Part shown: positions 16,615 to 64,000 of the stretch, one piece after another
Numbering within the stretch: the first letter of the stretch is position 1
Layout: each line of letters starts with the position of its first letter
Assembly (NCBI GenBank): GCA_037974965.1
Contig: JBBPFI010000002.1
Span: 3,062,554-3,126,553, forward strand
Reading direction: 5' to 3'
DNA length: 64,000 bases
From: Dacryopinax spathularia
Taxonomy: Eukaryota; Basidiomycota; Dacrymycetes; Dacrymycetales; Dacrymycetaceae
Made by a program: the position numbers and the translations under genes
Notes under the pieces: model-generated
What the model was told of the DNA's origin: nothing
The model's database searches: none
The model's input: only the letters and a program-made list of their open reading frames with translations

Positions 16615-16839
16615 AGGATCTGGGCTCTCCGCCTTCTCATCGATTCTCAGGGCGCCACTCGACTTTTTTGCGTCTAGAAGTTGGCCGGCCCCGACCTTCC
16701 CTCCTCCCCGCCCTTTCCCTTCCACCGACACCATCTCAAGCCTCAGCAGGACGTTTCATACTTCCTGCTCGAGCTCAGGTGGGATACTGAGCTCGGGCTT
16801 GGGCGCCTCTCTGACCAACTACTCGACTCACCTTAGTCG

Positions 16840-17585
16840 AACACCTCTCTGTCCAACAACTCACCTTTGTTTCAGCCCAACACCTCTCTGTCCAACAAGC
16901 GTCACTCCCTTTTCTACTGCTACTCTTACCCTCACACTCGTTCGCACTCACACTTACACTCGCACTCCTAATCCCACTCACACTCACACTCACACACGTA
17001 CAACAACCCCCATACCTAATTCCGCTCGCACTCGCCTTCTCCCCCTAACTCCCACTCTCACTCGCCTTCTCCCACTCACTCTCACTCACACTCGCACTCT
17101 CACCCACACTCTCATCCGCGCCCGTACCCACACTCGCGCCGGCACTCGCACTCGCACTAGGAACTGGACCGGCAATCTCCTTCCCTGTTGCGGCGGACAT
17201 TCTCCTATTCGTCCCACCTCTCTGTCCAAGTCCTCGGCCTCGCCTTAGACCAGCACCTCTCTGTCCACCTCCGCGGTCTCGCCTCGGTCCAACGCCTCTC
17301 TGTCCAACACCTCACCCTCCCCTCCGCCCAACACCTCCCTGTCCAACACCTCCCTGTCCAACACCTCACCCTCCCCTCCGCCCAACACCTCCCTGTCCAA
17401 CACCTCCCTGTCCAACACCTCACCCTCCCCTCCGCCCAACACCTCCCTGTCCAACACCTCCCTGTCCAACACCTCCCTGTCCAACACCTCCCTGTCCAAC
17501 ACCTCACCCTCCCCTCCGCCCAACACCTCCCTGTCCAACACCTCACCCTCCCCTCCGCCCAACTCCTCCCTGTCCAACACTTGTC
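16840..17585 (+). repeat. CCAACACCTCYCTGT minisatellite in the leader of gene A
   Basis: Two or three isolated units (about 16848-16900) and a (CACTCA)-like simple repeat (about 16920-17160) precede a dense block from about 17215 to 17580. The block is made of the 15-mer CCAACACCTCCCTGT and a longer form with ACCCTCCCCTCCGC inserted. The block ends 6 bp before the start codon at 17586, so it probably forms the 5' leader or proximal promoter of gene A. Confidence 0.8.
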
Positions 17586-19925: not shown

Positions 19926-21421
19926 CTACCTCGCGCCGGCAATTGCACGACCAGCAGCAAGGGGACCAGTACGGCCCAGGCGCATCGTCTCAAACTCCTC
20001 CTGAACCCGTTTACAAGCACGCTCCCGAGCCGCAGCACGCACAGCTTCTGGATCCATGTTGAAACGTTCGCGGAACGGCGCGCGCTTGGGTGGATGAAGC
20101 GGATTGATAGGCGCAGAAGAGGTGGGAACGCTAGTTCGAGTCGGGGCGGTGACAGTAGCCGGAGTAGGGACGGGCCGCAGGGGACGCGCACCGCCAGGAG
20201 TCGGAGAAGGAGGTGCTCGTCGAGACGGCCTCCGAGAAGCAGTCCGGAACTCTTGAGGAATACGCAGAGTCGCGTAGATGGGAGGGATATCCTCCCATCT
20301 CTTGTACCTCGGAAGCTCCTCGTTTGGACCAATATCATCCTCAAGAATGCCACTGTTATAGGCAGAGAAGGATATGGTGTTGGACAGAGAGGTGTTGGAC
20401 AGGGAGGTGTTGGACAGGGAGGTGTTGGACAGAGAGGTGTTGGACAGAGAGGTGTTGGACAGGGAGGTGTTGGACAGGGAGGTGTTGGGTGGAGGAGAGG
20501 GAGAGGTGTTGGACAGGGAGGTGTTGGGCGGAGGAGAGGGTGAGGTGTTGGACAGGGAGGTGTTGGACAGGGAGGTGTTGGGCGGAGGGGAGGGAGAGGT
20601 GTTGGACAGGGAGGTGTTGGGCGGAGGAGAGGGTGAGGTGTTGGACAGGGAGGTGTTGGACAGGGAGGTGTTGGACAGGGAGGTGTTGGACAGAGAGGTG
20701 TTGGACAGGGAGGTGTTGGACAGGGAGGTGTTGGACAGGGAGGTGTTGGGCGGAGGAGAGGGAGAGGTGTTGGACAGGGAGGTGTTGGACAGGGAGGTGT
20801 TGGACAGAGAGGTGTTGGACGCGTTTGCAATGGCGGAGTAAGAGGGAGGTGGGGTTGAAGGCACAGTAGTCGCAGAAGCGTTGACCAGCTGGCCTTCATA
20901 AGTGACATCGCTGGCATTTGCGGGGGTGACTGCCGAGCTGGTCTCCTCCTCTTGAACACCGCGGTTGGTTGGGGTTGGAGTATTGATAGGGGAAGTTGAG
21001 GCGAGAATGGGTTCGTACTCTGCAGGACCGGCAGAGTGCGATGTAGAGGTGGTCACGATGTCGGTGACCAGGTTCTCCCGCAGGCGGAGAACGATAGCGT
21101 CAGTAGTACCCGCAGAGCTGGCGGGTTCAGTCGACGAGGTGGCAGCAGTGTCGGCTGCCGGGCCCACCCGCAGGCGGTGGGCGATGTGAGTTGTGTAGTT
21201 GTGCAGACAGTTCCCGGTGATCTTCTGCATACCCCGAGCAACCACACCGGCCGCTTGCTCGGGGCATGCTCCTCCATGCCTTCCAGGATCCAGGCCAAGT
21301 CCTACTCCAGGATTAGAAGGAATCAAGTAAACGATAGTGAGCACGTACCAGAGCTCCCCTCAACCCCTTTGTCGCCGCTCGGGCCGATCGACATGGGATG
21401 AGAAGACCTCCACCCAGCCAT
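19926..21421 (-). CDS. Island gene B: low-complexity protein, possibly with an intronic minisatellite
   Basis: A start at 21421 with exon 21421-21349, a 47-bp intron and exon 21301-19926 gives 482 aa. The middle of the second exon (about 20822-20370) is the minisatellite, which reads without a stop as repeated NTSLS and NTSPSPPP. It ends at TTCTCTGCCTATAACAG, a very good 3' splice site, so the tract may be an intron instead of protein. After it come GILEDDIGPNEELPRYKRWEDIPPIYATLRIPQEF and a basic Pro/Arg tail. The N-terminal part is Thr/Ser/Ala-rich. No domain recognised. If translated, every NTS is an N-glycosylation sequon, but there is no signal peptide. Confidence 0.45.
20370..20822 (-). 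repeat. Minisatellite tract within gene B
   Basis: About 30 units of the CCAACACCTCYCTGT family, some with the longer CCCTCTCCTCCGCC insert. On the minus (sense) strand the tract is C/T-rich, the same orientation relative to the gene as in the transposase introns and the gene A leader. Confidence 0.85.
21186..21208 (+). repeat. Hairpin repeat, copy 1
   Basis: Begins GTGAGTTGTGTAGTTGTGC and continues AGAC. It lies inside gene B in antisense, where it reads as CLHNYTTH. The downstream TCTGCA can pair with its TGCAGA. Confidence 0.6.
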
Positions 21422-23623: not shown

Positions 23624-26600
23624 TCACTCTAAACTACGGGCAGGAATATGGTGAGGGAACTGATTACGTCGGCTTAGCTCAAGCAGTATATGCTCATTGC
23701 GCGCCTTGATGACTTCGTCTAGAAAGAATTCGAATCGTACAGCTGACATCTCTCTCGTCTGAGCAGCGAACTTGCGCAGCCAAGCGTTTGCCTGCTCGCA
23801 GGCGGAGGAGTTGAAAAGCCACTTGTTGGGCATATGCTCGTCGTACAAGTCTGGGTAAGCGGCGGGATTACAGAATGTGCTGCAGTATTGGTCGCCCGAC
23901 AGCTTGTGCTTTTTCTCCCAGTGAAAGGCATCGACCACGAGCGTCGTATGCTCAAAATGTTGCTGGATCTCCTCGGTACGATTTTCGAGATGACGCCGTA
24001 GATTGCAGTTGTTGTCGAAATATAGGACATCGGGCATTGACGCCTTGGTTGGAAAAACCGACATCAAGAAGTCCTGTTGTATGTATGAGCTTATCGACTT
24101 AACACAGAAGCAAGAAGCACTCACTACAACCGAGCCAAGCGCTTCGGCACCGTAAAACGTGCCGCGACCGATGATGATACCGCATGGACGAACGACCAGC
24201 TGCTCGTTGTGCGTTCGATTCCTACCGAATCGCGCACGCAGCCTCTTCGTCCCATTCTCTTTGGTGGGGATGGGTTCGAGCTGCACGAGCTGGTCCACAT
24301 CCACCTCAGTCTCCTCACCCTCACCCTCCTTCTCCCTCTCCTTCTCTATCTCCATCTCTATCTCCATCTCCACCAAGCCCTCGTCCAAGTCGATCGACTC
24401 TTCAGACTCCTCAAGCACATCCTCACCTCCCGCTTCACCCTGCACATTCAGCCCAGCACCTCCCTGTCCATCACCTCCCTGTCCAGCCTCACCCTCCTCC
24501 TCGACCCCCTCACCCTCATCTCCCTGTCCATCACCTCTCTGTCCAACACGTTCATCCAAAACCTCCAGCTCCTCATCACCCTCCTGCTCCTCATCACCCT
24601 CCTGCTCCACATCACCATCCTCCTCCTCGCCTCGTTCATAAGGCTTCTGAAATCGATGGCGACGTGACAGGAGACTGAACGACTTGCCGGGCGCCTTGTA
24701 TCTCGTCTCGAGGGCTCGATGATGGATGTCGCTGCAGGTAAGTCTGGCCTCTTCTGCAGGAGCATCGCAGCCCTCTACAGCACAGAGGTACTCGCGGTTC
24801 GTATGCTGCGAGCAGAAACGCGCTCGGTTGTTTATGAGGGGCAGAGGGCAGTTGTGCATGGAACAGCAGGGCCTGCCAATGGCAATCCCGTCTATCACGG
24901 CACACTGAACCATTCCTAACGTACCTATAAGCGCTCCAGCACAATCAGAAGGAAAACGACACTCACTCTTTTCGTCCCCTCGCTGTACGACCTTCAGGCA
25001 CAAGTTGCAGGCATGACCCCACTGCGGCTGCCCATTTCGAGCCATAAACGTATTGCGGGCTTGCATAGCGCAGAATAGTCGTTCGGCCTGATTGCGGGCA
25101 ACCTCGGGAAGGCGTAGAGTCGTTTTCTGCTCGTTGTGATGTAACAACAGCGCGAAAAGGTCGAACAGGTCGGAAACCCACTCTCCTCGCAGAGCGGATG
25201 CTTCGTACCGTCCTACGGAAGGGGCGCTTGCCTGCCGTAGAGCCTGGTCGTACGTTTTCGCATTGGCAGTCGCGGAGGCGCTGTGGGACAGATCAGTCCT
25301 ATGAACAGATCCTTGCAAGGTGGGAAAAGATTCAGGCCGTTGGATTGAACGGAAAGGTATGGACAGAGAGGTGTTGGACGGAGGGGAGGGTGAGGTGTTG
25401 GACAGAGAGGAGGGAGAGGTGTTGGACAGGGAGGTGTTGGGCGGAGGAGAGGGAGAGGTGTTGGACAGGGAGGTGTTGGGCGGAGGAGAGGGAGAGGTGT
25501 TGGACAGGGAGGTGTTGGGCGGAGGAGAGGGAGAGGTGTTGGACAGGGAGGTGTTGGGCGGAGGGGAGGGTGAGGTGTTGGACAGGGAGGTGTTGGACAG
25601 GGAGGTGTTGGGCGGAGGGGAGGGTGAGGTGTTGGACAGGGAGGTATTGGGCGGAGGGGAGGGTGAGGTGTTGGACAGGGAGGTGTTGGGCGGAGAGGTG
25701 TTGTGCGGAAGTGGATAGAGCGGAAATGGAAACAGAGAAGGAGGAGGAAGACTCACTGAGCGTGAACCGTTTGTGCACGGAAGAGCTCGCACAGCTGCCG
25801 CTCAAACAGCATGTGCTTCTCTCCTTGCACCACAGCTGGGACGCCGTCATAGTAGACCCTCTGATCTTTCCCATTGTCGTCCTGCTCGCGATAGTAATTG
25901 AGGTAATAGGTCGCTCGGCAGGACCGACAGCGTAGAGAGACCACTATAACTGGGAAAGCACCCCGGCCGACGGTGTACAGACCGGCGTAAATCCTTCGAG
26001 GATCGTGTAGAGGCTGCCTTTGGTGTTGGTTCAGATAGTGAGGGCAGCGCTGGCGCGTGCACACTCGCATAGGCGGATAGAACTCTTCGATACCTTCATG
26101 AACATCATCAGTTGCCGATAGGACTGTAATGAAGAGAAAGGCGGGAGAACAGATGTTGGACAGGGATGTGTTGGACAGGGATGTGTTGGACAGGGATGTG
26201 TTGGACAGAGACGTGTTGGGCTGAGGCGAGAATGAGGTGTTGGACAGAGAGGTGTTGGACAGAGAGGTGTTGGACAGAGAGGCATTAGATCGAACGTACC
26301 GAGCCCAAAGCTTTGAGCCAGCTGGGCGAAAGGAGCGAAATCGTCGACAAGCGGTACAGAGACCCCGGCTGGATCGAAATGCGTATTCCATACGACTGCA
26401 CCGAGTATGTTCCAAAGCCCAGTCACTTGCGCGGAAGACACGCCAATGGCGTTGGCAAGAAAAAGGTTAATCGTATTGGGAAGCGTGTTCGGCGGCGTAT
26501 CGAGATCACCGACGTGGGTGATCTCCTGCCAGGTGATACGAGACTGAAGTCGACGAGAGAAAGCCAGAAAAGACAAAACTTGCTCGACGGTGACGTTGGC

Positions 26601-46640: not shown

Positions 46641-47216
46641 ACGCAGAGCAACAGCCAGAAGGATGGTAGAGGACAGAGAGGTGCGCGTTCAGGGATCATC
46701 ACCGGCGCACCCCTGATAATCTATCCAGCAGCCTCTCCTTTCACAGACCCATCCACCTCTCCTTCTTCCTCTCATACCGTATTCCCCTTTGTGCCTTTCC
46801 TACTTACCTTACAACACTCAGCCCCACCCCTCCGAGCCGACCAAATTTTGCTAAGCCCATTTCCTTTCCATGCATGCACCTGCAAGGCAAGAGCCCTGAG
46901 GAAAGGAAAACCCTTGCGCGCGAAAGGAAAACTCTGTAGGGGGAAAGGGGACCCTTGCGCGCGAAAGGAAAACTCTGTAGGGGGAAAGGGGACCCTTGCG
47001 CGCGAAAGGACAACTCCTGGGGGAAAGTACCCCTTGCCCGGAAAGGAACGCCTGTGGGAGGCACTGCCTCATGCCTGTGGGAGCTTTTATCTGCATCCGT
47101 AGGATGTATACTGTGCTCAGCTCAAGGTCACCTCTTGCTTTCCATCAACGACAGCAATCTACTTGTGTGCACTTATTGTCTAACCACCTCGCCATCCATC
47201 AGCACTATACCCACCA
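45497..47216. other. Repeat-rich spacer
   Basis: Occupied by the 200-bp diverged repeats and the 41-bp tandem repeat; no gene recognised. Confidence 0.5.
46907..47020 (+). repeat. Tandem 41-bp repeat
   Basis: Nearly three copies of ACCCTTGCGCGCGAAAGGAA followed by AACTCTGTAGGGGGAAAGGGG. The last copy is truncated and diverged. Confidence 0.85.
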
Positions 47217-47599: not shown

Positions 47600-48110
47600 T
47601 GTGCTAGGGTCCGGTTCCACAAACACCCATACCTAGGAGACCCTAGCCCTGGGAGCCGCTTGTGGAACCGGTCCCTTGACGCGGACAAGTCCGCGTCAAG
47701 CAATTGGACCCTGACCACTGGACCCTACCCCCGGCGGGGGTAGGGGAACGGACTGTGGAACCGGTCACATGACCACACCCACCCGCGTCAAGCGCATGGA
47801 CCCTATGCAGTGGCTGTGTCCCTCCCAGGCGGGGGTAGGGAAACGCGCTGTGGAACCGGTTCCACAGAATCCTTTCCCCAACTCAAGCTGAATGCCTGGC
47901 GGGGGTAGGGGAACGCGCTGTGGAACCGGTTCCGTAAATCTCCTCTTCCCAACTCAAGCTGAATACCTGGCGGGGGTAGGGGAACGCGCTGTGGAACCGG
48001 TCCCACAGAATCCTCTTCCCCAACTCGACCTGAATACCTGCCGGGGTAGGGGAACGCGCTGTGGAACCGGTTACACAGATTCCTTTCCCCAACTCATGCT
48101 GAATGCCTGG
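47600..48110 (+). repeat. Subtelomeric palindrome array 1
   Basis: Six to seven units, mostly of exactly 70 bp (GTGGAACC at 47851, 47921, 47991, 48061). Each reads GGCGGGGGTAGGGGAACGCG, CTGTGGAACCGGTTCCACAG, then a CTTTCCCCAACTCAAGCTGAATGCCT spacer. One unit (from about 47756) carries the special insert CCGCGTCAAGCGCATGGACC that also occurs once in each of the other two arrays. Its right edge leads into the promoter of the gene at 48293. Confidence 0.9.
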
Positions 48111-48210
48111 CACCTCTTGATTTTCCGTCTTCTTTCTTCGGACGCATAGTTTGGAGTTAATCGGCTGATCGCTTCTTGTCGAACCGCGAGATACGTAACC
48201 ATTTCGATCA

Positions 48211-48292: not shown

Positions 48293-48862
48293 ATGGACCC
48301 ACACAACTCATACTTGTAAGTCACTGGAACTGTGCTTGCGTCACCCCAGTCATTCACCAGTCCAACCAGCGTGCTCAGCGGCCATCGCTGGTGTATGCCT
48401 CATCCGGTCGGCATCGTCCTCTATAACGAGGAATGGGTACCCTGGGTGATGAAAGCGCTCGACCGATCTGACCCTCCCACCAACCTTCTGGAGCGCTGCC
48501 AACTGCTTCACGCGGCGGTCAAGATGTGGGCGCAAGCGGATAAGACCAGCCCTCCGATGTACTCCTTCGCGCCGGTCCCACTCTGGTTTGAACCTCCCCG
48601 GGCCAAGAACGGCACCGTCCTTTCCGATTTCGACGGCATTTTCTTCGTTCGAGAGTATGTGTTGGAGACCACTGCTGCGGCCTTTGCCGGAGCGCCACCC
48701 CCGAAGGAGCTGGTCATGGCGTGGTCGTATTATACCGGCATGTTGGAGGAACTGGGCATCCCTGTGATCCGCTGGGCTCTGGGATATGCTGCCTCCCTGC
48801 CCCTCCCGTACTGGCACGGTGAAGGCTGTCGCCTTGAAGAGCGTAGAGTTGCCATTTGTTGA
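48293..48862 (+). CDS. Subtelomeric paralogue 1, unknown family
   Basis: An 8-residue first exon (48293-48315, MDPHNSY) and a 54-bp intron (48316-48369) lead to the main exon ending at 48862; 171 aa. The core reads GIVLYNEEWVPWVMKALDRSDPPTNLLERCQLLHAAVKMWAQADK, then PLWFEPPRAKNGTVLSDFDGIFFVREYV and IPVIRWALGYAASLPLPYWHGEGCRLEER. It is homologous along its whole length, including intron position and promoter, to the gene at 62818. Between the two copies the protein changes are mostly conservative, which suggests purifying selection. No family recognised. The C-terminus here has a few extra residues (RRVAIC). Confidence 0.7.
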
Positions 48863-49139
48863 TTTGTTCCGGAAGATAATGTCATTAAGGTAGTCCCCAC
48901 AAGGCCGCTATGCTCTCAACGTCCTTAACTTCGTGATCCATGTGGAATGGCTGCGAAGGCTGGTTCGAACCGTGCGCGAACCGTGCGATATCATTCCTGC
49001 ACGTATCGACGGCGTCCATTCTGGCGCATCTCGCTGTACATTGAACTTCATGCGGCTTAAGGTCCGGGCTCCTGCACCCACGTTGTTCTGGCCTCCGTCC
49101 TTACCTATCTTCCCTGCCATGTTTTTGCCTGGGGGGGAT

Positions 49140-49580
49140 AGGGGAACGCGCTGTGGAACCGGTTCCACAGATTCCTTTCCCCAACTCAAGCTGAATGCCT
49201 GGCGGGGGTAGGGGAACGCGCTGTGGAACCGGTTCCGTAAATCCCCTCTTCCCAACGCAAGCTGAATGCCTGGCGGGGATCGGGGAACGCGTTGTGGAAC
49301 CGGTTCCACAGAATCCTTTCCCGAACCCCAGCTGAATGCCTGGCGGGGGTAGGGGAACGCGTTGTGGAACCGGTCACATGACCGCAGCCCCCGCGTCAAG
49401 CGCATGGACCCTATGCAGTGGCTGTTCCCCCCCCCAGGCGGGGGTAGGGAAACGCGCTGTGGAACCGGTTCCACAGATTCCTTTCCCCAACTCGAGCTGA
49501 ATGCCTGGCGGGGGTAGGGGAACGCGCTGTGGAACCGGTTCCACACCCCTCCTTCCCGAACTCAAGCTGACGTTTGGTTG
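49140..49580 (+). repeat. Subtelomeric palindrome array 2
   Basis: Six units with GTGGAACC at about 49153, 49223, 49293, 49364, 49459 and 49529: a 70-bp period, with one 95-bp unit carrying the same CCGCGTCAAGCGCATGGACC insert as arrays 1 and 3. Confidence 0.9.
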
Positions 49581-50330: not shown

Positions 50331-50337
50331 TATAAAA
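50331..50337 (+). promoter_or_regulatory. TATA box of the SNF2-type gene
   Basis: TATAAAA 65 bp upstream of the ATG at 50402, followed by a pyrimidine-rich leader. Confidence 0.55.
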
Positions 50338-50401
50338 ACTCTCTGTTCGTCTGCTTTCCCCCCCACCCAGCCTGTTCGACGTACCATCTGGCACGGCAAA
50401 C

Positions 50402-53400
50402 ATGCCCCGTGGTAACTTCATCAACGTCTTTCTCGACTTTGTCTTCACCAACCTGGACGACGGAAATCATGTCGTTCTTCCCCCCTTGTCTCCTGCCGGT
50501 GAGCAGGCTAACATCCGGACTCCTGTGCCCCGCAATCCGCCCGACCCACCCGACATTCTCGAGATCTTGCAGCACCCGCCTCCGCCCACCTCCGATACTG
50601 CCAACTCTGCGAATACTGCGAACACAGCGCCTCATGTACCGGGACGCCTGCCCCCACTGCCGGTGCTGCCCTGGCCTTCCGTCTTTGACCTCCCAACCTT
50701 CCAAACCACTTTCGGTGTCACCTGTCATCCCCTGTTCGGTTATCCTGGCTTTTTCAGCCTCACGCACTTTCGCGAAGTCCAAATTTTTTTGCGTGAATTC
50801 GGCCGCCTTTCCCTTCGCCGTGACGAGAAGGAGTATTTGACCAAAGGCTACGGGCGAACCCCCGCTGCGCTGCGTGGCCAATCGGCGTTCCTGGAATGGG
50901 TGGATGAAAAAGCCGACTTCGTTCTTAAGCCATTGATGGACGGCATCATACTGAGCGGCTCGTTTGATCCAATCAAATACGTTTACAGTCTTCCTGAAGA
51001 TGCCAAGGTACAACCGTGTGCATCCTATGCCGAATTTCGCACACTCACCTTTACTTTCAGGTCTCTGAAGCTCCTCCCCGCGGCTATGAGGCGTGGTACT
51101 ATCCTCTGGCGATGGCGTTGTTCGGACCCGGGGACGGCGTCGCGTATACGGCTGTTCCGAAAGTAGCCGAAGGTGACACAGGCACGATCATCCATGAGGT
51201 CACCTTCAACGGGCGCATCAAGGACCCCGTGGACAACATCTGTAAGCTCAGCTGGCGACGACTTGTCCTTGCCGCGAAGAACAAGAGGATTAGGGTGAAG
51301 AAGGCGTCCGATGAAGCCGACCAGTTTTGGAACGGTATGTTATGCTGGACCTGCCACACGAGAGACACACTCCTGACCTTTCAATCCAGATTTGAAACTG
51401 TGCCAAAGCAGCTCGCCGCAGACCGTTAGGGAGTTCCTTGGACGCGCGTTGAAAGCACATCAAAACGTGTCGAAGCTTGTCAAGTCTATCCCTACTGTCA
51501 CCCGATATGCACTCGAAGTTCGTGATCGACAAGAACAAATTGAAGAAATATTCGATGTTCTTCACATGAATGCGGTTGAGCGGGCTCAATTCAAGGGACA
51601 AAGTGGGTCGGATGCGAATCGCTTTGTTCGATGTACTGACACACTGTACAGAACTGCATGATTCAATTGTTCGCAGTCTGAGCAAGCTTACGTCGGAGGC
51701 TGATCTGGAGAGGACCTTGAACTACCTTGAGCACGCTATTTCCACCCCGGGCCCCATTAACCCCTCTTGGGCCGTGGATCCGGCACTCCCTGAAGGTTTA
51801 TCCCGCGAAGAGCTTTTACAGGAGATGTATGGTGATTGGACCGGGGAATTGGAACGCTCCTACCTGGGGTCCGCTGTGTTGTTGCATCAGATGGGCGTAC
51901 CGGGTGCTGACGGAGTGGACGAGCCGCCTTTCCCCCTTTTCCGTTCTCTTGTCCATCCCAACGGCCTCATCAAAGAGAACGACGAACCGGAATGGAACCG
52001 AGCCGCGGCCAAACAACTTCTCCAGCCTCTCCGCCTTCGTCGTCACCAGCTCGCAGCGGTCGACCATTTGGTCGAGCGTCTCATCCTTGGTGAGCCGATG
52101 GGCCTGTTTGACGAAGTTGGACTGGGGAAGACCATGGTCATGTTTGCGGTCATCTGCTATTCGATCTTCGCAAGGGCGTACTTTGACAAGTACGGAGTAT
52201 TCCCTGGTCGCTTTGGTGAGTCTCTCATCCCTATGGGTTCTCTTCACCGGTTAATCTGTGGAAAAGCCAACCTGCGCTGCACCCGCACAGAGTCTGGCAA
52301 CCTACCGGATCTGCCTTGGATTGTTGTCATGCCACCTATTCTGGTCGCACAGTTTCGAAGCGAGTTTCACCGCATGGTCCTTCCTCATGCCATCGATCTT
52401 ATCGAGTACGCCGGACAAGCAGCTACCCACGCGCGTGTTATGGGCCCGGATGGACTGTGGGATGCTTGCAAGACCAAGCTGGGCAATCGAATCCTTCTGG
52501 TCACACTTCCAGTAAGTCGCGATCCCTCGCAGATGCTTTATGATCCTTGCTCAGCCATCTCCTTCCAGTCGCTTGCCTTTGATTCCAGTGAGCTGTGGGT
52601 GAAGGAGCCCAGCGGCACCTCCCTCAATGCCTCGCCAACGCCTACCCTCAAGTTCGAGTCCCTGGTAGGGCGCACCATGTTCAAGCTCAAGCCGATTGGA
52701 TGCTTCATTGATGAAGCGCATATGACACGGAAGCCAGGACGGGCAATGTCGGCTCTGTATGCCCTTCGAGACACCGGTGCATGGATGTGTGCAGTAACGG
52801 CCACTCCTTTGGTATCGTCACCCCGAGTGAGCCACACACTCTCTGAAGTCTGCGCATGTATTGACGTCTCGCTTCCCAGGATATTGCCTTTCTTGGACGC
52901 ATGATGGGTCTGCCTGCTTTCGACAACCCAGAGACCGAGATCCAGATTAAGCAGCTGGAGAAGGAGGTGTCATCTGCCAAGCGGCTGAACCGCATTCGCC
53001 TGAAGGTCGGCTTGAAGGCATTACCCGAGCTCGTTCGGGACCCTTTGCAGCGCGAGATTAAGTTCCACCGCGAGATCTTCGCCGGTTACGTAATCCGACG
53101 ACATAGTCGGATGGACGATGGTAACGGCAGCCCATTGATACCTCTTCCCCCACTCCACACAATTGACGTTTGGCTCAACATGAGCCCTCGCGAGCTTCGG
53201 GCCGTTGAGCAGGTGAAACGGAAGGCATTGGAGGCCGGCAAGTACCAATACGATGATATCCATCCTGGCGCCAAGGTAAGCAATCCTTCTATTGGTTCGT
53301 CCCGTGCTGACGACATTCCATAGCCCTTTTATATCCAAATGCGCGTCCTCGCTGCGCACCCAGAGTCGGCTGTTCGCGAAGATTTTCCAGACAATTGGCC

Positions 53401-55378
53401 GACCAGTCGCACCCACTACAGCTTTGCACCGTCGTCAAAGTTCACCGCCATGATTGATCTTATCCTGTACCATCGCTATATGGGCCCGTCTGCGCCACCC
53501 CCTTACTTCTATCCGGAAAATCACCTCGATCTTCGCTCCAATCAACCGTCGGCATGGCTCTATTTTGATCACCCTCTTTACGACAGAGAATTCACTTCCC
53601 ATTCAACTCCAATGAGCCGGCAACCAGACTGCATACGTGATTACGCCGCGTTCTGGGTGCCAGACCTGGATACCCTAATTGAAGACACGCCGTGTGGGCC
53701 GCCACTTGCTGAAGTCGTTTACTTCCTTCGCACTGGGAAGAACTCGTTTTCCCCTTTGACGTTGCCGCCCTCCCCACTTGAAATCGAACTGGGTGCCCTG
53801 GAGGACCCGTCTGAATCTCGTCCGGTGCTGAAACAGGAGGGCTTGTGGCGACGCTCTGATGAGGAAAAACGTCGCGAGCTCGAGTCGCGCGACATCTGGA
53901 CGCCCGTCGAGATCGCCCAGATCCATCGTCGTTACCGGTTCTTCTACGAGCACCTGCAGAAGGAGCTTGAGGCTGCCGCTGAGAGAAAGCCTCGGATGTA
54001 CCTGCGACGGTCAGAGCAACAAGATCCCCTCTACGCGGAGGACTGCCATGCCGCTGGTGTGGGGCAACCGCCACGTATTGTCGTCTATGGCGAATTCCCG
54101 GCGCAATTTCCTCGTGTCAAACGTGTGAGTGAAACTGTGATTTCATAGGCGAAGCAATCCTTATCGCCCACGTAGGTTCTGCAGGCATTTGGCATCCGCT
54201 CAATTGAAGTCACCGGTGAGACTAAGCAAGGCAAGCGTCACGAGATCATCAAGGCATGGAAGGAATCCCGTGATTATGTGCTCCTCTTGTCTGCCGTCGG
54301 CTTGGCCGGTCTTAACCTGCCGGAAGGGGACATTGGTATATCTTTGGTGAGCCCTTATTCAGCCGTCTGTCGTTCCGCCGCTGATTTAAATGTTCCATTA
54401 TAGAGTCTGACTTGGTCTGCTCAGGACGAGCGCCAGCTGATCGGTCGCCTCCATCGTCCTCCTCGGACGCTCCCCGTCGTGTGGTATCGCCTCATCCTAC
54501 GGGGCACGATTGAGGAGAAGGTCTACGATGGTTCGTGTGGTGCCGGCCTCCTACTGGAGGCCTATCTTGAGGACAAGACGCTGGTGGAGCATGGGGCACT
54601 GCAGCAAGCCAAGGCCGAGCATGAGGCAGACAAGCAGATCATCAAGGAGCGGTTGAGAATTGCTCGAATGGAACATTTGGAGCTCGGTGGGCCCGGTGAA
54701 TCCACAGCACCCAGGGCAGCACAATCCCAGGATCGATGGACCCCCATTCCCGACGACCCGGAGGTTCACATCCTTTCTCACTTGGTGGACCGCCAATTCT
54801 CCCTGGAGGCTAGCCCGCTCACGGACCAGACGAGCACAGGTGCGGAGCCGGAGTACGACCCAGGCGAGGACCATGACAGCGCAAGCTCGCTTGGCCTTGC
54901 CAGTGAAAACGACGAGAACGAGGACGGGGCCACGCCTGATCCCCCGCTCGATCACGCCTTGCAAGAGACCGCCGACATGGACACCAGTGATCAGGAGCTT
55001 GATGCAAGGGAAGCGTTGGGTGAGGAGGATGGCAACCCTGATGCAGGCGATGGTATTCCCGCGACCAGCACTCCGAGCACGCTGCGCCCACAGGCAGCGA
55101 CGCACCGCGCCAGCCCCTCCCCAAGCGAACAGTCCACCCACGTTTCGGAGACTCCGCAGAGGAGCAAGCGCAAGCGCAGTAGCCTCGCCCCCTCCTCGGA
55201 CGCCAACACAACCTCTCGTGCGTTGTCTGACGACATGCAGGGCATGCAGTTGGGGGATCAAACCCAGCGTAGTCCCCCTCGCAAGCGGGCTAAGACCATT
55301 AGAGCCTCTGAGGTGAATGCCCTGCTGGAGAACACCCTCATGCCTTTGACGCCCCGGAGGACGCGCAATCGATCGTAG
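50402..55378 (+). CDS. Subtelomeric SNF2-family helicase/ATPase
   Basis: Ten exons join without a frame break: 50402-51007, 51061-51334, 51390-51602, 51652-52215, 52267-52511, 52569-52826, 52880-53275, 53324-54124, 54176-54346, 54404-55378; 1500 aa, introns 48-57 bp. Motifs in order: LRRHQLAAVDHLVERLI (Q-like), LFDEVGLGKTMVM (Walker A, Lys524), LPWIVVMPPILVAQFRSEFHRMV (Ia), CFIDEAHMTRKPGRAMSALYAL (Walker B, Asp682), VTATPL (III), LLLSAVGLAGLNL (V) and DERQLIGRLHRPPR (VI, about residue 1184), the SNF2 equivalent of GRxHRxGQ. The N-terminal 200 residues are Pro-rich and novel, and the last about 300 are acidic/Ser-rich with a basic patch (PPRKRAKTIRASE). Probably a chromatin or DNA translocase. 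It lies between palindrome arrays 2 and 3, next to the recombinase-helicase gene on the same strand. Introns 4 and 5 are multiples of three, so retention would keep the frame. Confidence 0.82.
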
Positions 55379-55846: not shown

Positions 55847-58800
55847 ATGTCTACTCTTAGTGTGTCTAGTGGCCGCGTTGCAACGCTGCCGTACACTCCA
55901 GGTGTGTTGACCTGCTCAGCCATGTTTGCTCCTTCAGCCTGTAACTGGCTCTCGCAGGCATGAATTGTCCCGAGGACGGTTGCGACTTCCGCCCCAACAA
56001 TGCAACCTATTGGCTCATGCACTGGAACACGAGCCACACGACCAGCGTGACCGTGACCATCGGTGTGACCAACTACTTGATCACCCGGAAGGACAATCTC
56101 TTTCACTGTCCATTCGAAGGCTGCGAGTTTACACACGTCTCATCGAAGGCGCTTTCAACGCATGCCTCGGACCATGGCCCTGCTAAGCGCACGCGACCTT
56201 CGCGTGTTCGTCCCCAGAGTACTGGACTGCCACTCAAGATGGTCGCCAAGACGATTGAACCCATTTCCGCCCCTGTAATCCCCGCGCTCGCTGCTGCTCC
56301 ATGCGAAGCGTCGGTAAATGAAGATTCACCGGCCGAACAGTCCATGCTCACGCTGGTCGACACGGCATCTGGTAACGCGAAATCGCCCGGCATCGATTGC
56401 AAAGGGTTAACTGAGACCCCCCTGTTTGCGGACCATTTTCTCACCCACATCGGATTTGTCCTTCACCGGGACCTAAGGGTGCTTATTTGCACCCATCCTG
56501 CGCATGGATATGCGGTATTACCGGCTGCCCTTGCTCGGCATGTACGGGAACATGCATATGGTTTCCACGTGAAGGAAGAAGACCTTGACCGGGAACTTCA
56601 AAAATACGATCTTTGCTCGTCTGCCGATGATGTTCATCAGCCCACGACTGACTGTCCTGCCCTGGAAGGGTTTCCCATCCAGGAAGGGTTTGCATGCACA
56701 GCGTGCGACAAAGTCGTTCAATCCCTAGGGTCGTTCCGAAAACATGCGACCGATGTGGCCCACCATCCAGCGCAGTTCAACTTTGTGCGCTGCCACGTGC
56801 AGAAGATATTCCATGGCATTCACCGTCGCTATTTCAAGGTCGTGCCGTCTGTGACGACAGGCCGGACCGATCCAATCGAGGAAGCCCTCAATGCGCTGGG
56901 ATCTCACCTCCGGGATGTCGAGGAGCAGGACATGCCAGTCCGCCTTCCTCATACTGATCGCGACCTCTCCCCCTTTCTTGAAAAGCTCCGTTGGCCGCAT
57001 CATGTGTCGGGCCATTCTGCGCGGGCGCTCGTTGCCTTAGCCGCGCTCCCTGTGGCACCAAACGAGGACGGATTGAACCTTCTGGTGCTGAAAGATGCGG
57101 TCGAAGGCCTGTACGAGAGGATGATGGCATCTGTGCGCACGGGTGATCTTTTGAGCCTCAAATGGCTTCATAGTTCAAGCCCGTGAGTGCCTTCCGGCTC
57201 TTGCGATCTGTGGAATAACACTAACGGTGTATGCCAGGACGGAACCTGACTTGATGCCATTCCAGGCATACTTGTCAGAGGATACCATTCACCGTTCCGC
57301 CCGTGCTTTCACACGTTTGCTTTGTTTCTGCCTCCGTCGCGCCCCTCCTGGTTACGACCGGCAGTTGACAGAGGCGCAAGTCTCTGCGATTGAAACCTTG
57401 CGAACAGCCCTTGGCCGGCGTCCGGCCATTCTGAACCGCGCTCCGCAAGAAGACGGGTCGATGTCCCTTGACGATGCCGTTGTACAGGCAGGGCATGCTC
57501 TGTTAAAACATCGCATCGTCGGAAGGATCACTGGACTTTTGACCCACGCACTGGAGCGATTCATTGTTTGCTGGAGCCTCCATGATGATGGCGGATTTGA
57601 TGGACCCCATGATGTTGGCCCCAAGATGGCCATTTTAAAGCACATTTTCCGATCCTTGGTTTATTTTCAGGCGGAATGTGTTTCCCAGGCCACAGGAGAG
57701 GGCGTGTACGAGTACGTTGCCACCAGCCCGACCTTCCTTAGGGTTACCATATACTGACTGTCCCTGTTCAGCCTGGTTATGAGGGATCGTGAATGGCTTG
57801 TTGCGACTGCTCCCACGCCTTGGACCGCCCTGACTCATATAGGGGCATTGGCTGCTACCATGGCCTCGCAGGAACGGATGGCAGAACGCGTGACCTGGTT
57901 GAACGGCAGCTATCGAAGCATGAGTTTGAATGGGAAGCCCCTTGAGCTTGATGGCATCACCACGGCGTGGCGCGCTCGGTTGAAGGAAGCGGAAGACACA
58001 TTTCAAGCAATGCTGGGTGGGGCTGACACCATTGAGGACCTGGATCCCCCCTATGAGTATCTTATCGACGAGCCGAGGAACGATACGGCCTACTACTCCT
58101 TTGCCACCGATACAGCGAATCCATTCGGCGGAGGGGATCTTCGGCTTCTACGCGCGTGGCTTCGCCATCCAGACACGCCCTATCACTCCGGCGTGCGAGA
58201 GGGCAAGGTGGTATGGCGGGTCGACAAGGTGTACGAACTACTGAATACGGCGGCAGCATTGGAGCTCAAGCTATGGACGCTCTACACGATCGGCTCTGGC
58301 TTGCCATCCCGTGGGGAAGAAGACGCCACATTGTCCTTCTGCAATACACTTGGACAGCAACGCAACGTGAGATGGATACCGACGTGGGAGGTGGACGATC
58401 CGAATGTTAAGGGCCTTCTCTGTGTTGTCGGCGGGTACCACAAGAACGCACACCAGTACGGCACGCGCAAGGCGGTGATCAACGCCCTTCCACCCCAGCT
58501 TGGACGACTCTTTGTGCGGTACATTGCGTTCATGAAGCCTGTCCTTTACTATTTTGCACGCGCATTTCTGCTGGACCAAGGTATTATCGATGCCTATCGC
58601 ACACAGCTCTTTGTTGCCATGAAAGGGCATCTGCATGGGGAGGATCTTTCCACATCGCTCCTCCACTGGTCGAGATCGTCGTGGGGCGTGGACATGCGAA
58701 TTCGAGAGTGGAGGCACGTGGCCACCGCATTTGCGCGTCATCATATCAAGTCGCAGGAGATTATAGAGGCAGTGGAAGGCTTGGTCGACCAGCAATGTGG

Positions 58801-61363
58801 TCACTCTGCGGGCACGGCAGATCGTGTCTACGGCCTGGCTGAAGGACCCATCCCGCAAGTCTCCGACACGTATCTCCGCTCGGCCTTGCGGATCAGTAGC
58901 TACTGGTGGGCGCTCTTCAGTATTGGTCCACCGCCTCGACGGAGTTCGGCTCATCGCCTCTTGGTTTCGGATGATGGAGGCGAAGCAAAGCGTGCCGACG
59001 TGAACATGGACCTTTACGATGTCGCCGAGGCGGTTGGCCAACGACTGGACGCCAGAATGCGTCCCTTGATATCGGAAGCCGTGGTGCAGGGACTTGTCCC
59101 ATTCATTGCGCGCATTGAGGCCATGGCCCCCGCAGGACAAGTGGTAATGGGCCGACCGGCTGCATGCGGAGAGGTTGCTCATCTGGGATTGTTGCGGCGC
59201 GCGCTTGGTAGCCCCTGTGCCTCTTTCCGCCCTGGGCAGGGCCCTTTCCTGGCCGAGCTTTTCGCGCGCGAGCGGTCTGTGCTGGCTGCACTTCCTACAA
59301 GCTCCGGGAAATCTTTCACGCTTTTCCTCCCTTCGATGTCGTCAGAAGCGCGTCTCACAACGGTGATTATCATGCCCCTGTTGGCTTCGATCCAAGACGC
59401 TATCGACCGTGGGAGCCGCCTGTCCATTGCCACTGAAGCATTCACCCCGGACCTGTCCATGGAACTGCGACCTCGGATCCTCCTCATGACACCGGAGAGT
59501 TTTGCCACGTCTCTTGCACAGACGTTCATCCGTACCCTTGCGCTGCATGGCGGTCTCGCACGGATCGTGCTTGATGAAGCACACCACCTGCTTACATCAG
59601 AGGGATGGAGGGATGTTGCGCGACGTATGGTTCACCTGCAAGACGTCATTTGCCAGAAGGTTGCAGTCTCGGCCACCCTACCCTACCTGGCCCGCTCCCA
59701 TGTGCAACTGATGCTCAGATTGAACAACCCCGTTTGGATCTCCGAATGTACCGTGCGGAAGAACCTCGTGCGACGTCTGGTTCGGGTCTCGCGTGACGAG
59801 GTTGTCAGTGCCGTCATGGCTGCTGTAGTCCATGTTGTGCCGCACCTTCACAAGGAGGAACGTGCCATTGTCTACTGCACTTCAAAGGCAACTGTCGGGC
59901 AGATCCACGATGGATTAGTCAATATGTATGGAGTGGCGGCGCAACGGTATCATGCGGACATGTCCACCGATGATCGGACTGCCAGCTTCCGCGCTTGGCG
60001 GAACGCCCCGGCTGCTTGTGTGATGGTCTGCACGACCGCGTTCGGGGAAGCCATCGATGTTGGGCAAGTACGCTTTGTGTGCCAAGCCCAGTCGCCGGCT
60101 TGCCTGATCGACAAGGTGCAGGAGGATGGGCGGGCCGGACGCGATGGCGCGCCAGCTTTGGTCTACACCATCTACAGCCATCCACCCCGGGATCGGTCCG
60201 ATCAGACGGAGGACTTTATCGGCAGCAAGGCCATGCGCTCATATTTGCAGGCCCACACGGGCCGGACCTGTCTTGTGGCAGTGGAATCCCTCTTTCTAGA
60301 CGGAGTTGTCCGCACCTGCGTCGACTTGAACTGCCTGCCATGTCAAAGTTGCTGCGGTCCGATCCTCCAAGAGTCTCCATTGAGTGAATGGTTGCCTGTT
60401 GCTTCGGACAGCGGGGAATTGTTACGTGTAGTGGCCGAGCGACATTCGGACATCCGCCATCCCAGTTCGAACGCTCTCCTTCGGCCGTCGGACACACCCA
60501 TGCCGAGCCCAACAGCGCTTCCCAGTCTTGCGGGCACAACCCTGCATCGAATTTCCCCTGACCCCGCTTCCTCATCCCCAGCCGACGAGGTGATGGACGA
60601 TGAGTCCGCCAACGTGGATGTCACGTCCTCCGCGTCCAATGCTCCATCCTCCGAGAAGACATTTGCCACTCTTGCGACCGGCAGCCTCGTCAGCGTCCAT
60701 CGGGGGACGTCCGATGCGTCGATTGGCCTCGTCAACCCGACCTCATATGTCAATGCATCGGTACCGGCTTTTGTGGACCACGTCATCGTTCAACAGCGCA
60801 ACCGGACATTGTTGGCCCGCGCCCGGGAGTGGTTGGATGGGATTCGAGAGACGGCCACTTCATGCCCTGCCTGCTGGTTCCATGGCGTTCCAGGCACGCA
60901 TGGAAAGGACCCGATCAAATGCGCATATCTCGGCGGGGCCGGACCCTTCATCAGCTTCAAGCGCATAACACGGCAGTTCTATCCAGGGATGTCATCTGTT
61001 TGCAATGGATGCTACCTGCCGCAGTGGATGGAAGGGTTTCACGGACCGAGCCGGCGCTGCTACTTCAGCGACACGGTTGCTGTCATCGTGTTTCTCCTCT
61101 TCAAGTATATGCAAGAAAGCCGACCCGAAGATCGTGGCGTGGCAGCGGTGATGACTAGGATGATGTCCAAGGAAGAAAAGCGTCTCCATCCGGAATGCTG
61201 GTCGTCTTCCGACACCTTTGCTGCTTGGCTGGGTTATTGTCCGGACCCATCCGTCAAGAGTATGCTTGTACCGCGTGCTTTATGGATGCTGGAGTGGTAT
61301 CTGCGTGACCGTTCTGCGCGCCCGAAGATTGCGGCTGGGAGTGATCAGGAGACTTCTGCGTAG
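55847..61363 (+). CDS. Telomere-linked OrsD zinc-finger / tyrosine-recombinase-like / RecQ helicase fusion
   Basis: Four exons, 55847-55901, 55958-57182, 57238-57711 and 57772-61363, join in frame to 1781 aa. N-terminal C2H2-like fingers (CPEDGCDFRPNNATYWLMHW; CPFEGCEFTHVSSKALSTH) are followed by an OrsD/DUF3505-like region (about 175-300, with LICTHPAHGYAVLPAALARHVREH and ACTACDKVVQSLGSFRKHA). Residues about 740-945 carry the tyrosine-recombinase pattern: GLPSRGEE (Arg765), YHKN (Lys809), RIREWRHVA (Arg896, Arg899, His900), CGHSAGTADRVYG (His929, Tyr938). The His-to-Tyr spacing of 9 equals that of Cre and lambda integrase. A RecQ-type helicase follows: FRPGQGPFLAEL, LPTSSGKS (Lys1098), VLDEAHHLL, VSATLP, AIVYCTSKA and QEDGRAGRDG. 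The C-terminus has more Cys clusters (CLPCQSCC; CPACWFHG). RecQ-like telomere-linked helicases are known near fungal telomeres; the recombinase assignment is mine. This is the second gene from the telomere. Confidence 0.85.
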
Positions 61364-61799: not shown

Positions 61800-62440
61800 C
61801 ACGTTGGGGCACCGGTTCCGCGACCTCACTTTCGGGGGTAGGGAAACGCGGTGTGGAACCGGTTCCACAGATTCCTTTCCCCAACTCAAGCTGAATGCCT
61901 GGCGGGGGTAGGGGAACGTTCTGTGGAACCGGTCACATGACCGCAGCCCCCGCGTCAAGCGCATGGACCCTATGCAGTGGCTGTTCCCCCCAGGCGGGGG
62001 TAGGGAAACGCGGTGTGGAACCGGTACCACAGATTCCTTTCCCCAACTCGAGTTGAATGCCTGGCGGGGATCGGGGAACGCGCTGTGGAACCGGTTCCAC
62101 AGAATCCTTTCCCCGAACCCGAGCTGAATGCCTGGCGGGGGTAGGGGAACGCGCTGTGGAACCGGTTCCACAGAATGCTTTCCCAACTCGAGCTGAATGC
62201 TTGCCGGGGGTAGGGGAACGCGTTGTGGAACCGGTTCCACACTCTCCTTTGCCCAACTCGAGCTGACCACTGGCTGGAGCGGGGGAACGCGCTGTGGAAC
62301 CGGTTCCACACTCTCCTTTGCCCAACTCGAGCTGACCACTGGCTGGAGCGGGGGAACGCGCTGTGGAACCGGTTCCGCCAATCTCCTTTCCCCGCACTCG
62401 AGCTCACGACCGGCGGGGGTAGGGGAATGCCACGTGGAAG
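61800..62440 (+). repeat. Subtelomeric palindrome array 3
   Basis: Eight to nine units of the same family (GTGGAACC at about 61854, 61924, 62014, 62086, 62156, 62226, 62293, 62360), mainly 70 bp, two of 67 bp, and one long unit with the CCGCGTCAAGCGCATGGACC insert. The perfect 20-bp palindrome CTGTGGAACCGGTTCCACAG occurs at about 62083 and 62153. Confidence 0.9.
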
Positions 62441-62817: not shown

Positions 62818-63375
62818 ATGGATCCCCACAACTCGTACTTGTAAGTTACTGGCACTGTGCGCGCGTGACCGCATTCATTCACCCGTCCATCCAGCGTGGT
62901 CGACGGCCATCCCGGTATGCCTTACCCGATTGGCATCGTCCTCTACAACGAAGAATGGGTACCCTGGGTCATGAAAGCACTCGACCGAACCGACCCTCCC
63001 ACCAACCTTCTGGAGCGCTGCCAACTGCTTGATGCGGCCATCAAGATGTGGGCGGAAGCGGATAAGGGTTACCCTCCGATTTTCTCCTTCGCACCGATTC
63101 CACTCTGGTTTGAACCTCCTCGCACCCGGAAGCGCGCCGTCGTTTCCGATTTCAATGGCATTTTCTTTGTTCGGGAGTTTGTGACGGAGAAAACGTCCGG
63201 GGCGTTTGCTGGGGGGCCACCGCCAAAGGAGCTGCAGAGGTGGTGGTCGTATTATACCGGAGTGTTGGAAGACCTGGGCATACCTGTCATCCGCTGGGCT
63301 CTGGGGTTTTCTGCGTTCCTGCCCCTCCCGTACTGGCACGGGGAAGGCTGTCGCCTTGAAGAGCGTTCAGAGTAG
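62818..63375 (+). CDS. Subtelomeric paralogue 2, unknown family
   Basis: First exon 62818-62840 (MDPHNSY), 54-bp intron 62841-62894, second exon to 63375; 167 aa. It reads VVDGHPGMPYPIGIVLYNEEWVPWVMKALDRTDPPTNLLERCQLLDAAIKMWAEADK, then FSFAPIPLWFEPPRTRKRAVVSDFNGIFFVREFVTEKT and IPVIRWALGFSAFLPLPYWHGEGCRLEERSE. Intron position, promoter and upstream palindrome array are shared with the copy at 48293, so both arose by segmental duplication. It is the last gene, about 500 bp from the telomere repeats. Function unknown. The conserved WVPWVMKAL and ELxRWWSYYTGVLEDLGIPVIRWAL segments are probable amphipathic helices. Confidence 0.7.
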
Positions 63376-63880: not shown

Positions 63881-64000
63881 GGTTAGGGTTAGGGTTAGGG
63901 TTAGGGTTAGGGTTAGGGTTGGGTCGAAGTGGGTTAGGGTTAGGGTTAGGGTTAGGGTTAGGGTTAGGGTTAGGGTTAGGGTTAGGGTTAGGGTTAGGGT
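63881..64000 (+). repeat. Telomere repeat (TTAGGG)n
   Basis: Near-perfect TTAGGG repeats from 63883 to the end, G-rich strand pointing right, as expected at a right chromosome end. One 15-bp variant block, TTGGGTCGAAGTGGG, interrupts them at 63919-63933 after about six repeats; about eleven repeats follow. Confidence 0.97.

What the first reader, a model, noticed from the sequence alone, without database searches (positions are those of the whole stretch)
55847..61363. Tyrosine-recombinase-like domain fused to a RecQ helicase next to a telomere
Seen: the reconstructed protein has, between its zinc-finger half and its RecQ half, an ordered set Arg765 (GLPSRGEE), Lys809, Arg896-x-x-Arg899-His900, His929 and Tyr938. 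Known: tyrosine recombinases use R-K-HxxR-H/W-Y, with the last His/Trp nine residues before Tyr in Cre and lambda integrase; here the spacing is also nine. The RecQ part keeps GKS, DEAH and QEDGRAGRDG. Inference: this subtelomeric helicase could cut and join DNA at telomere-proximal sites, or derive from a recombinase-based (Crypton-like) mobile element that acquired a helicase. I do not know whether this domain has been described in telomere-linked helicases.
Basis: partly seen in the sequence, partly recalled or inferred. Interest (0 to 1): 0.9.

Follow-up and report, generated by a model that had tools for sequence, protein, structure and literature searches.

The report
Telomere-linked helicase with recombinase-like domain
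A fungal gene beside a chromosome end encodes a zinc-finger and RecQ-helicase protein whose middle part carries nearly all the signature residues of DNA cut-and-rejoin enzymes (tyrosine recombinases), which could mean that these poorly understood chromosome-end helicases also cut and join DNA, though the fold and activity are not yet proven.

Summary
It is a telomere-linked helicase: OrsD domain, RecQ-type core, stop codon 2.5 kb from terminal TTAGGG repeats.

Evidence for a tyrosine-recombinase (YR) domain at residues 728-970 is moderate. Unsupervised alignment with 19 Xer-like recombinases puts ArgI, ArgII-His, Gly-His and Tyr in register; 0 of 150 shuffles and 0 of 26 other segments of the protein match all six. 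An ordered motif hit only this ORF among 358 background ORFs. Against: no family match, null single-sequence profile scores, His of HxxR is Arg, Lys809 is not uniquely assigned, single-sequence AlphaFold failed, and the Xer-guided model is partly circular and poor around the Tyr. No fungal homologue could be fetched.

New context: arrays of a 70-bp repeat centred on GTGGAACCGGTTCCAC bound a SNF2-helicase plus TLH block; a small gene is duplicated outside it. Ten literature searches (capped listings, passages of nine papers) showed no YR described in these helicases.

The parts
55847..61363 (+). Telomere-linked helicase gene; exons 55847-55901, 55958-57182, 57238-57711, 57772-61363; 1781 aa
   Evidence: single ORF after removing three GT-AG introns
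56455..56754 (+). OrsD (PF12013) zinc-finger domain, residues 185-284
   Evidence: E 2.2e-11, 44.7 bits against cut-off 26.6
58199..58927 (+). Tyrosine-recombinase-like catalytic region, residues 728-970
   Evidence: register and controls; model built with Xer sequences as alignment
58310..58321 (+). Putative Arg-I (R765) with the acidic residue E768 (R-x-x-E)
   Evidence: the Glu column is nearly invariant in A3
58409..58411 (+). Alternative catalytic Lys K798, the one MAFFT aligns with the Lys of GKG in Xer
58442..58444 (+).
58703..58717 (+). Box II: R896-x-x-R899-H900 (Arg at the usual His-II position)
58799..58831 (+). G928-H929 and putative nucleophile Y938 (His to Tyr nine residues)
59255..59683 (+). 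DEAD/DEAH helicase domain, residues 1080-1222
   Evidence: E 2.3e-12
59822..60148 (+). Helicase_C domain, residues 1269-1377
   Evidence: E 7.2e-14; RecQ family TIGR00614 E 3.5e-35
51570..55378 (+). Neighbouring SNF2-type helicase gene (ORFs 51570-52904, 53324-54148, 54404-55378; that they are one gene is inferred, splicing not worked out)
   Evidence: ORFs; SNF2-rel_dom E 3.9e-7 in the first ORF, no hit in the other two
47662..48111 (.). Array A of 70-bp repeat with palindrome GTGGAACCGGTTCCAC
49126..49570 (.). Array B of the same repeat, on the side of the SNF2+TLH block away from the telomere
61806..62427 (.). Array C of the same repeat, downstream of the TLH stop codon
48293..48862 (+). 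Small gene, left copy (171 aa, one intron)
62818..63375 (+). Small gene, right copy (167 aa, one intron)
   Evidence: no Pfam hit for its exon-2 ORF
63883..63999 (+). Terminal TTAGGG telomere repeats (6 and 11 units, with a degenerate stretch between)

Best explanation
The gene is a fungal telomere-linked helicase (OrsD zinc fingers at the front, RecQ-type helicase behind) with a diverged tyrosine-recombinase-fold domain between them. That domain keeps Arg-I with its Glu, a Lys, Arg-II-His, a Gly-His and a Tyr, so the most likely mode of action is covalent: Tyr938 nicks DNA at a subtelomeric site through a 3'-phosphotyrosyl bond and strands are exchanged, while the zinc fingers give DNA binding and the helicase opens or branch-migrates the joint. 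The outcome would be exchange, excision or spreading of subtelomeric blocks between chromosome ends. Shown: the ORF, the residues in register, OrsD and RecQ domains, position at the telomere, flanking palindromic repeat arrays. Inferred: the fold (about 0.8), catalytic activity (about 0.45), use of the 70-bp dyad repeats as sites (about 0.15). The stated confidence is for a YR-fold domain that still makes and breaks phosphotyrosyl bonds.
For: All named residues confirmed. MAFFT without guidance aligned R765, R899-H900, G928-H929 and Y938 with the catalytic columns of 19 Xer-like recombinases; 0 of 150 shuffles and 0 of 26 other segments of the same protein matched all six positions; the best shuffles matched 5 of 6 (3 of 150), and R, R, H/W and Y together came up in 2 of 150. 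Ordered motif: 3 of 20000 shuffles strict, 81 of 20000 loose, and 1 of 358 background ORFs, this one. R765-x-x-E768: the Glu column is nearly invariant in A3 and a conserved Asp/Glu is described for YRs (PMC4381057, passages). hhalign with two recalled family rows added covers XerD 115-298 with R, RH, GHS and Y in register, E 1.8e-4 but probability only 23%. AlphaFold with the Xer alignment reaches pLDDT 61 (residues 728-970; 35 for residues 690-977 without alignment) and finds XerA, archaeal Xer and Cre first in the PDB, circular in part. OrsD and RecQ domains intact.
Against: No Pfam, PHROG, NCBIfam or PDB-sequence hit for the domain at E up to 10 apart from chance-level ones. hmmsearch --max with the Xer HMM gave -0.8 bits for the whole protein and -2.0 for residues 700-970, below the best of 1000 shuffles at 1.4; a four-block score was at shuffle level (284 of 1000 domain shuffles and 114 of 200 full-protein shuffles were as good); single-sequence hhalign gave nothing. 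Single-sequence AlphaFold pLDDT 35. The Xer-guided model is poor exactly where His929 and Tyr938 lie (block means 44 and 35) and around the hairpin (41-49); no Foldseek match at E<=0.001, query TM-score at most 0.45. His-II replaced by Arg; Lys ambiguous. ArgI-ArgII and ArgII-His distances (134 and 30) are longer than in XerD (99 and 23). No real homologue, so conservation is untested.
Confidence: 0.45

Rival explanations
1. The domain is descended from a tyrosine recombinase but is now a DNA-binding and assembly module without strand cleavage, as in DUF3504 proteins; the working enzyme is the helicase.
For: Weak profile similarity and an Arg at His-II. Domesticated Crypton YRs that lost catalytic residues are known (PMC3212892, passages). 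Phage regulators SroF, MrpR and YopR (that they have a YR fold is recalled) make up 5 of the 42 matches of the Xer-guided model.
Against: Both Arg, the Glu, the His and the Tyr are kept, whereas the DUF3504 genes all lost the Tyr and the second Arg. Several Cre variants with His-289 replaced retain activity.
Confidence: 0.35
2. Chance resemblance: the middle region has another fold and the residues line up by accident.
For: Null results; the pattern and the segment were chosen after reading the protein.
Against: Controls rarely reproduce the ordered set and none reproduced all six aligned positions.
Confidence: 0.2
3. For the arrays: the 70-bp palindromic repeats are a subtelomeric satellite or regulatory element and the duplication arose by ordinary homologous recombination, with no role for the TLH.
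For: Arrays A and C lie 0.2 and 0.4 kb upstream of the two copies of the small gene and array B upstream of the next ORFs, as regulatory repeats would; telomere-associated helicase elements are proposed as potential sites of homologous recombination at segmental duplications in Colletotrichum (PMC5576322, passages).
Against: Four units (47662, 47755, 49364, 61923) leave the repeat consensus inside the palindrome core, as strand exchange at a site might; but three of the four share one variant and so may go back to a single event, and slippage could do the same.
Confidence: 0.75

Closest known systems
Fungal telomere-linked helicases (TLH; Ustilago UTASa/UTASb, Fusarium, Colletotrichum DHX_G198, Agaricus bisporus var. 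burnettii)
   Same: RecQ-type core and position next to telomere repeats; OrsD/DUF3505 in the Colletotrichum elements and in Ustilago UTASb.
   Different: A paper on A. bisporus states that no domain other than the helicase core was found in subtelomeric RecQ helicases of that or other fungi; a YR-like region is not described in the passages seen.
XerA/XerD, Cre, lambda Int (tyrosine recombinases)
   Same: Order R-(E)-K-RH-GH-Y as in Xer; His/Trp to Tyr nine residues.
   Different: Arg instead of His-II, longer spacers, no profile-level similarity, fused to a helicase.
Crypton elements (fungal CryptonF)
   Same: Eukaryotic mobile elements that use a YR (PMC3212892, passages).
   Different: CryptonF proteins carry GCR1_C, not found here by Pfam; the word helicase has 0 occurrences in that paper's main text.
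Helitron RepHel transposases
   Same: A DNA strand-transfer domain fused to a helicase in one large protein (PMC6431247, passage).
   Different: A Rep domain with a helicase there; here a YR-like domain with a RecQ helicase. No Helitron family in the Pfam results.

Membership tests
Fungal telomere-linked helicase (TLH) | RecQ-type helicase core | tested here: met
   DEAD and Helicase_C over cut-off; TIGR00614 E 3.5e-35 though under its curated cut-off
Fungal telomere-linked helicase (TLH) | Lies in the subtelomere next to telomere repeats | tested here: met
   stop codon 61363, TTAGGG from 63883
Fungal telomere-linked helicase (TLH) | OrsD/DUF3505 domain as in Colletotrichum and Ustilago elements | tested here: met
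   PF12013 E 2.2e-11
Fungal telomere-linked helicase (TLH) | Multicopy at many chromosome ends | not testable with these tools
   no genome held
Tyrosine recombinase | Two Arg and the nucleophilic Tyr in order | tested here: met
   R765, R899, Y938 in register; spacers longer than in XerD
Tyrosine recombinase | His/Trp-III nine residues before Tyr | tested here: met
   H929, Y938
Tyrosine recombinase | His at the HxxR position | tested here: not met
   Arg896; a paper calls this position less well conserved than the Arg pair
Tyrosine recombinase | Lys in the beta hairpin | tested here: inconclusive
Tyrosine recombinase | Match to YR profiles | tested here: not met
   (single sequence)
Tyrosine recombinase | YR catalytic fold | tested here: inconclusive
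   single-sequence model useless; Xer-guided model resembles XerA/Cre but is circular and poor around the Tyr
Tyrosine recombinase | Strand cleavage and joining activity | not testable with these tools
   needs biochemistry
CryptonF transposon | GCR1_C domain beside the YR | tested here: not met
   no GCR1_C among Pfam results for the exon pieces; that Pfam holds a GCR1_C model is recalled
CryptonF transposon | Short terminal direct repeats | not tested
   element ends are not defined
Starship captain (DUF3435) | DUF3435 match | tested here: not met
   no such Pfam hit; family name and its presence in Pfam recalled

The most novel reading that the evidence does not exclude
Fungal telomere-linked helicases are recombinase-helicase transposases: a tyrosine recombinase fused to a RecQ helicase that moves or homogenises the telomere-capping blocks of fungi by exchange at palindromic subtelomeric arrays, a YR counterpart of the Helitron RepHel design and a new class of telomere-associated mobile element.
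Probability: 0.17. Interest if true: 0.9.

Novelty: new variant of a known kind. Interest (0 to 1): 0.62.

Why it matters
Telomere-linked helicases sit at chromosome ends of a number of fungi, one of them (UMAG_12032) rises in both Ustilago telomerase-negative survivor strains studied, and their function is unsettled: one study notes that A. bisporus strains lacking them show no apparent telomere abnormality and suggests another role. A catalytic recombinase domain would give them a mechanism: they would be, or derive from, mobile elements that spread between chromosome ends. It would also be a recombinase-helicase fusion of a kind that my searches did not find described. The claim turns on one Tyr and is directly testable.

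Tried and rejected
Homologue hunts that found nothing: viral contigs with the window helicase, with A1, with A2, with the YR region alone; genome contigs with A1 and A2; phages and plasmids by tblastn with the YR region (one chance-level match each, E 4 and 0.5); plasmids with the exon-4 protein gave 701 records, of which 5 were shown, all matching in the helicase part, 4 annotated RecQ and 1 without annotation; PDB sequences (chance-level). A copy of the TLH elsewhere in the window: none.

Profile tests that gave no signal: single-sequence hhalign. Single-sequence AlphaFold was discarded as meaningless.

Considered and rejected: Crypton or Starship membership (no GCR1_C or DUF3435 in the Pfam results); Helitron (no Rep domain in the Pfam results); a mere ORF artefact (1201 codons open in the last exon, and intact helicase motifs).

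Selection: of 80 loci, 60 were put into the Xer set and 3 of these dropped (L025, L069, L079); 19 loci went into A3. The loci (mostly near-identical copies of Cre and lambda Int) were not used as profile members, though their ORFs entered the pool, from which YR-like ones were removed. The two MAFFT modes used the same 150 shuffles and gave the same counts; the 26 other segments were run in one mode only.

Literature: search listings are mostly capped at 10-40 rows (one search held 1621 papers and showed 15). Passages were seen of nine papers; none was read whole. Of the four papers, two were opened; the T. cruzi and Ectocarpus papers were seen as listings only. PMC1462230 (Magnaporthe helicases) is not held.
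Full report
WHAT WAS CHECKED. The window ends in TTAGGG repeats on the plus strand (63883-63918 and 63934-63999), so its right end is a chromosome end. Removing three short GT-AG introns (55902-55957, 57183-57237, 57712-57771) from 55847-61363 leaves one reading frame of 1781 aa. A second donor for the third intron (57706) is open too and removes two residues.

WHAT THE GENE IS. The front holds an OrsD domain (PF12013, E 2.2e-11, residues 185-284) and the back a helicase core (DEAD 2.3e-12, Helicase_C 7.2e-14) closest to RecQ among NCBIfam models (TIGR00614 E 3.5e-35, under its curated cut-off). OrsD (DUF3505) with a RecQ-like helicase in the last kilobases before a telomere is known from fungi: Colletotrichum telomere-associated elements carry helicase and DUF3505 domains and occupy all 24 subtelomeres in one orientation (PMC5576322, passages); [quoted passage not shown] Fusarium ends carry many TLHs (PMC12857005, passages). 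So the gene as a whole belongs to a known kind. That DUF3505 is the older name of OrsD is recalled. The organism is not identified; that it is a filamentous fungus is inferred from these domains, the intron size and the telomere repeat.

THE MIDDLE REGION. Residues 586-981 match nothing in Pfam, PHROGs, NCBIfam or PDB sequences at E up to 10 apart from chance-level hits. Direct tests for YR similarity gave mixed results. Negative: the Xer HMM built here (XerD plus 57 of 80 fetched relatives) scores the protein at -0.8 bits and residues 700-970 at -2.0, while lambda Int and Cre score 52.7 and 32.7 and the best of 1000 shuffles scores 1.4; a strict four-block score is at shuffle level; single-sequence hhalign finds nothing. 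Positive: MAFFT, given residues 728-970 and 19 Xer-like recombinases with no guidance, puts R765 on Arg-I, R899-H900 on the Arg-His of box II, G928-H929 on Gly-His, and Y938 on the nucleophile. In a control run of the same kind the real segment matched 6 of 6 positions, 150 shuffles at most 5 (3 of 150; R, R, H/W and Y together in 2 of 150), and 26 other segments of the same protein at most 3. An ordered motif is found in 3 (strict) or 81 (loose) of 20000 whole-protein shuffles, and among 358 background six-frame ORFs only in this one, against 22 (strict) or 33 (loose) of 60 known YRs. Segment and motif were chosen after reading the protein, so these figures are not free of selection.

DETAILS OF THE ACTIVE SITE. 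R765-x-x-E768 reproduces the Arg and Glu columns of the Xer alignment, and a conserved Asp/Glu is described for YRs (PMC4381057, passages). The distance His929-Tyr938 is nine, as in XerD. The spacers R765-R899 (134) and R899-H929 (30) exceed those of XerD (99 and 23; positions printed).

STRUCTURE. AlphaFold on residues 690-977 alone gave pLDDT 35 and says nothing. With the 19 Xer sequences as alignment, residues 728-970 reached mean pLDDT 61: 82-87 in the stretch that holds box II, but only 44 and 35 in the blocks that hold His929 and Tyr938 and 41-49 around the hairpin. Foldseek then listed XerA, an archaeal Xer and Cre first (lambda Int at rank 21), best E 9.8e-3, query TM-score at most 0.45, none at E<=0.001; 30 of the 42 listed chains are tyrosine recombinases or integrases (29 by title, 3c28), 5 are SroF, MrpR or YopR, 7 are unrelated. 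Because the alignment was made of recombinases, this shows only that the sequence tolerates the fold in part. No control job was available.

CONSERVATION. I could not fetch a single fungal homologue: no genome is held for the window, and scans of viral contigs, genome contigs, phages and plasmids found none. From memory, ascomycete OrsD-RecQ proteins have GxPARGTE, RYHK, YRHIAI and GHSSHVAGxIYAR in the same order; of two such recalled segments the first shows 35% identity with the window by the tool's count, and with both added as rows hhalign covers the XerD catalytic domain with the motifs in register (E 1.8e-4, probability 23%). This is a lead only, since the letters are recalled and were typed after reading the window.

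SURROUNDINGS. A 70-bp repeat centred on the palindrome GTGGAACCGGTTCCAC (22 matches in the window at up to 3 mismatches, 10 of them perfect, 0.33 expected) forms three arrays at 47.66-48.11, 49.13-49.57 and 61.81-62.43 kb. Arrays B and C, in the same orientation, bound a block that holds an ORF without Pfam hit (50336-51166), a SNF2-type helicase gene (51.57-55.38 kb) and the TLH. A small gene is duplicated outside this block (48293-48862 and 62818-63375): 167 compared codons differ at 25, 18 and 41 first, second and third positions; 26 changed codons keep the amino acid and 38 change it; both copies are open. Four array units keep the left half of the palindrome and leave the consensus inside its core (47662, 47755, 49364, 61923); the last three share one variant. 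Direct repeats that bound a recombinase-like gene fit site-specific exchange, but also plain homologous recombination or promoter repeats; I give the site model about 0.15.

LIKELY MECHANISM. Most likely the protein binds subtelomeric DNA through its zinc fingers and YR-like domain, cuts it covalently through Tyr938, and uses the RecQ motor to open or migrate the joint, so that subtelomeric blocks are exchanged between ends. Only the anatomy is shown; binding, cleavage and exchange are inferred. The strongest rival is a YR-derived binding module without cleavage. Chance resemblance keeps about 0.2.

NOVELTY. Ten searches that combined telomere-linked helicase, RecQ, OrsD/DUF3505, UTASa, tyrosine recombinase, Crypton, integrase and subtelomere showed no paper, in the capped listings and the passages seen, that describes a recombinase domain in these helicases; (subtelomeric, RecQ, tyrosine recombinase, fungal) returned 0 papers, and (telomere-linked helicase, integrase) 1 paper, whose only passage on TLH is a figure legend (PMC8381367). 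One paper states that no domain besides the helicase core was found in subtelomeric RecQ helicases of A. bisporus or other fungi (PMC7473861, passages). The library lacks most subscription journals, so a description elsewhere is possible. If the domain is real, this is a new variant of a known kind, a YR-helicase fusion, comparable in design with the Rep-helicase fusion of Helitrons (PMC6431247, passage).

Noticed in passing
47662-48111, 49126-49570, 61806-62427: Three arrays of a 70-bp repeat centred on a 16-bp palindrome; arrays B and C bound the SNF2+TLH block; four units leave the consensus inside the palindrome core, three of them with the same variant.
   Followed up: partly
48293-48862 and 62818-63375: A small one-intron gene of unknown family duplicated on both sides of the SNF2+TLH block, both copies with open frames; third codon positions differ most (41 of 84 differences), but 38 of 64 changed codons change the amino acid.
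   Followed up: partly
51570-55378: SNF2-type helicase gene directly upstream of the TLH in the same orientation; exon structure not worked out.
   Followed up: partly
16806-17580, 20376-20820, 24326-24628, 25360-25709, 26154-26282: Many minisatellites, largely of CCAACACCTCCCTGT type, on one or the other strand; function not examined.
   Followed up: no
46901-47048: A 41-bp tandem repeat of another sequence at the inner edge of the repeat-rich subtelomere.
   Followed up: no
63919-63933: A degenerate stretch (TTGGGTCGAAGTGGG) interrupts the terminal TTAGGG array.
   Followed up: no
60840-61100: Cys/His-rich stretch near the C-terminus of the TLH (CPACWFHG...C...VCNGCYLP...C), possibly a further zinc-binding module; no Pfam hit in the region.
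   Followed up: no
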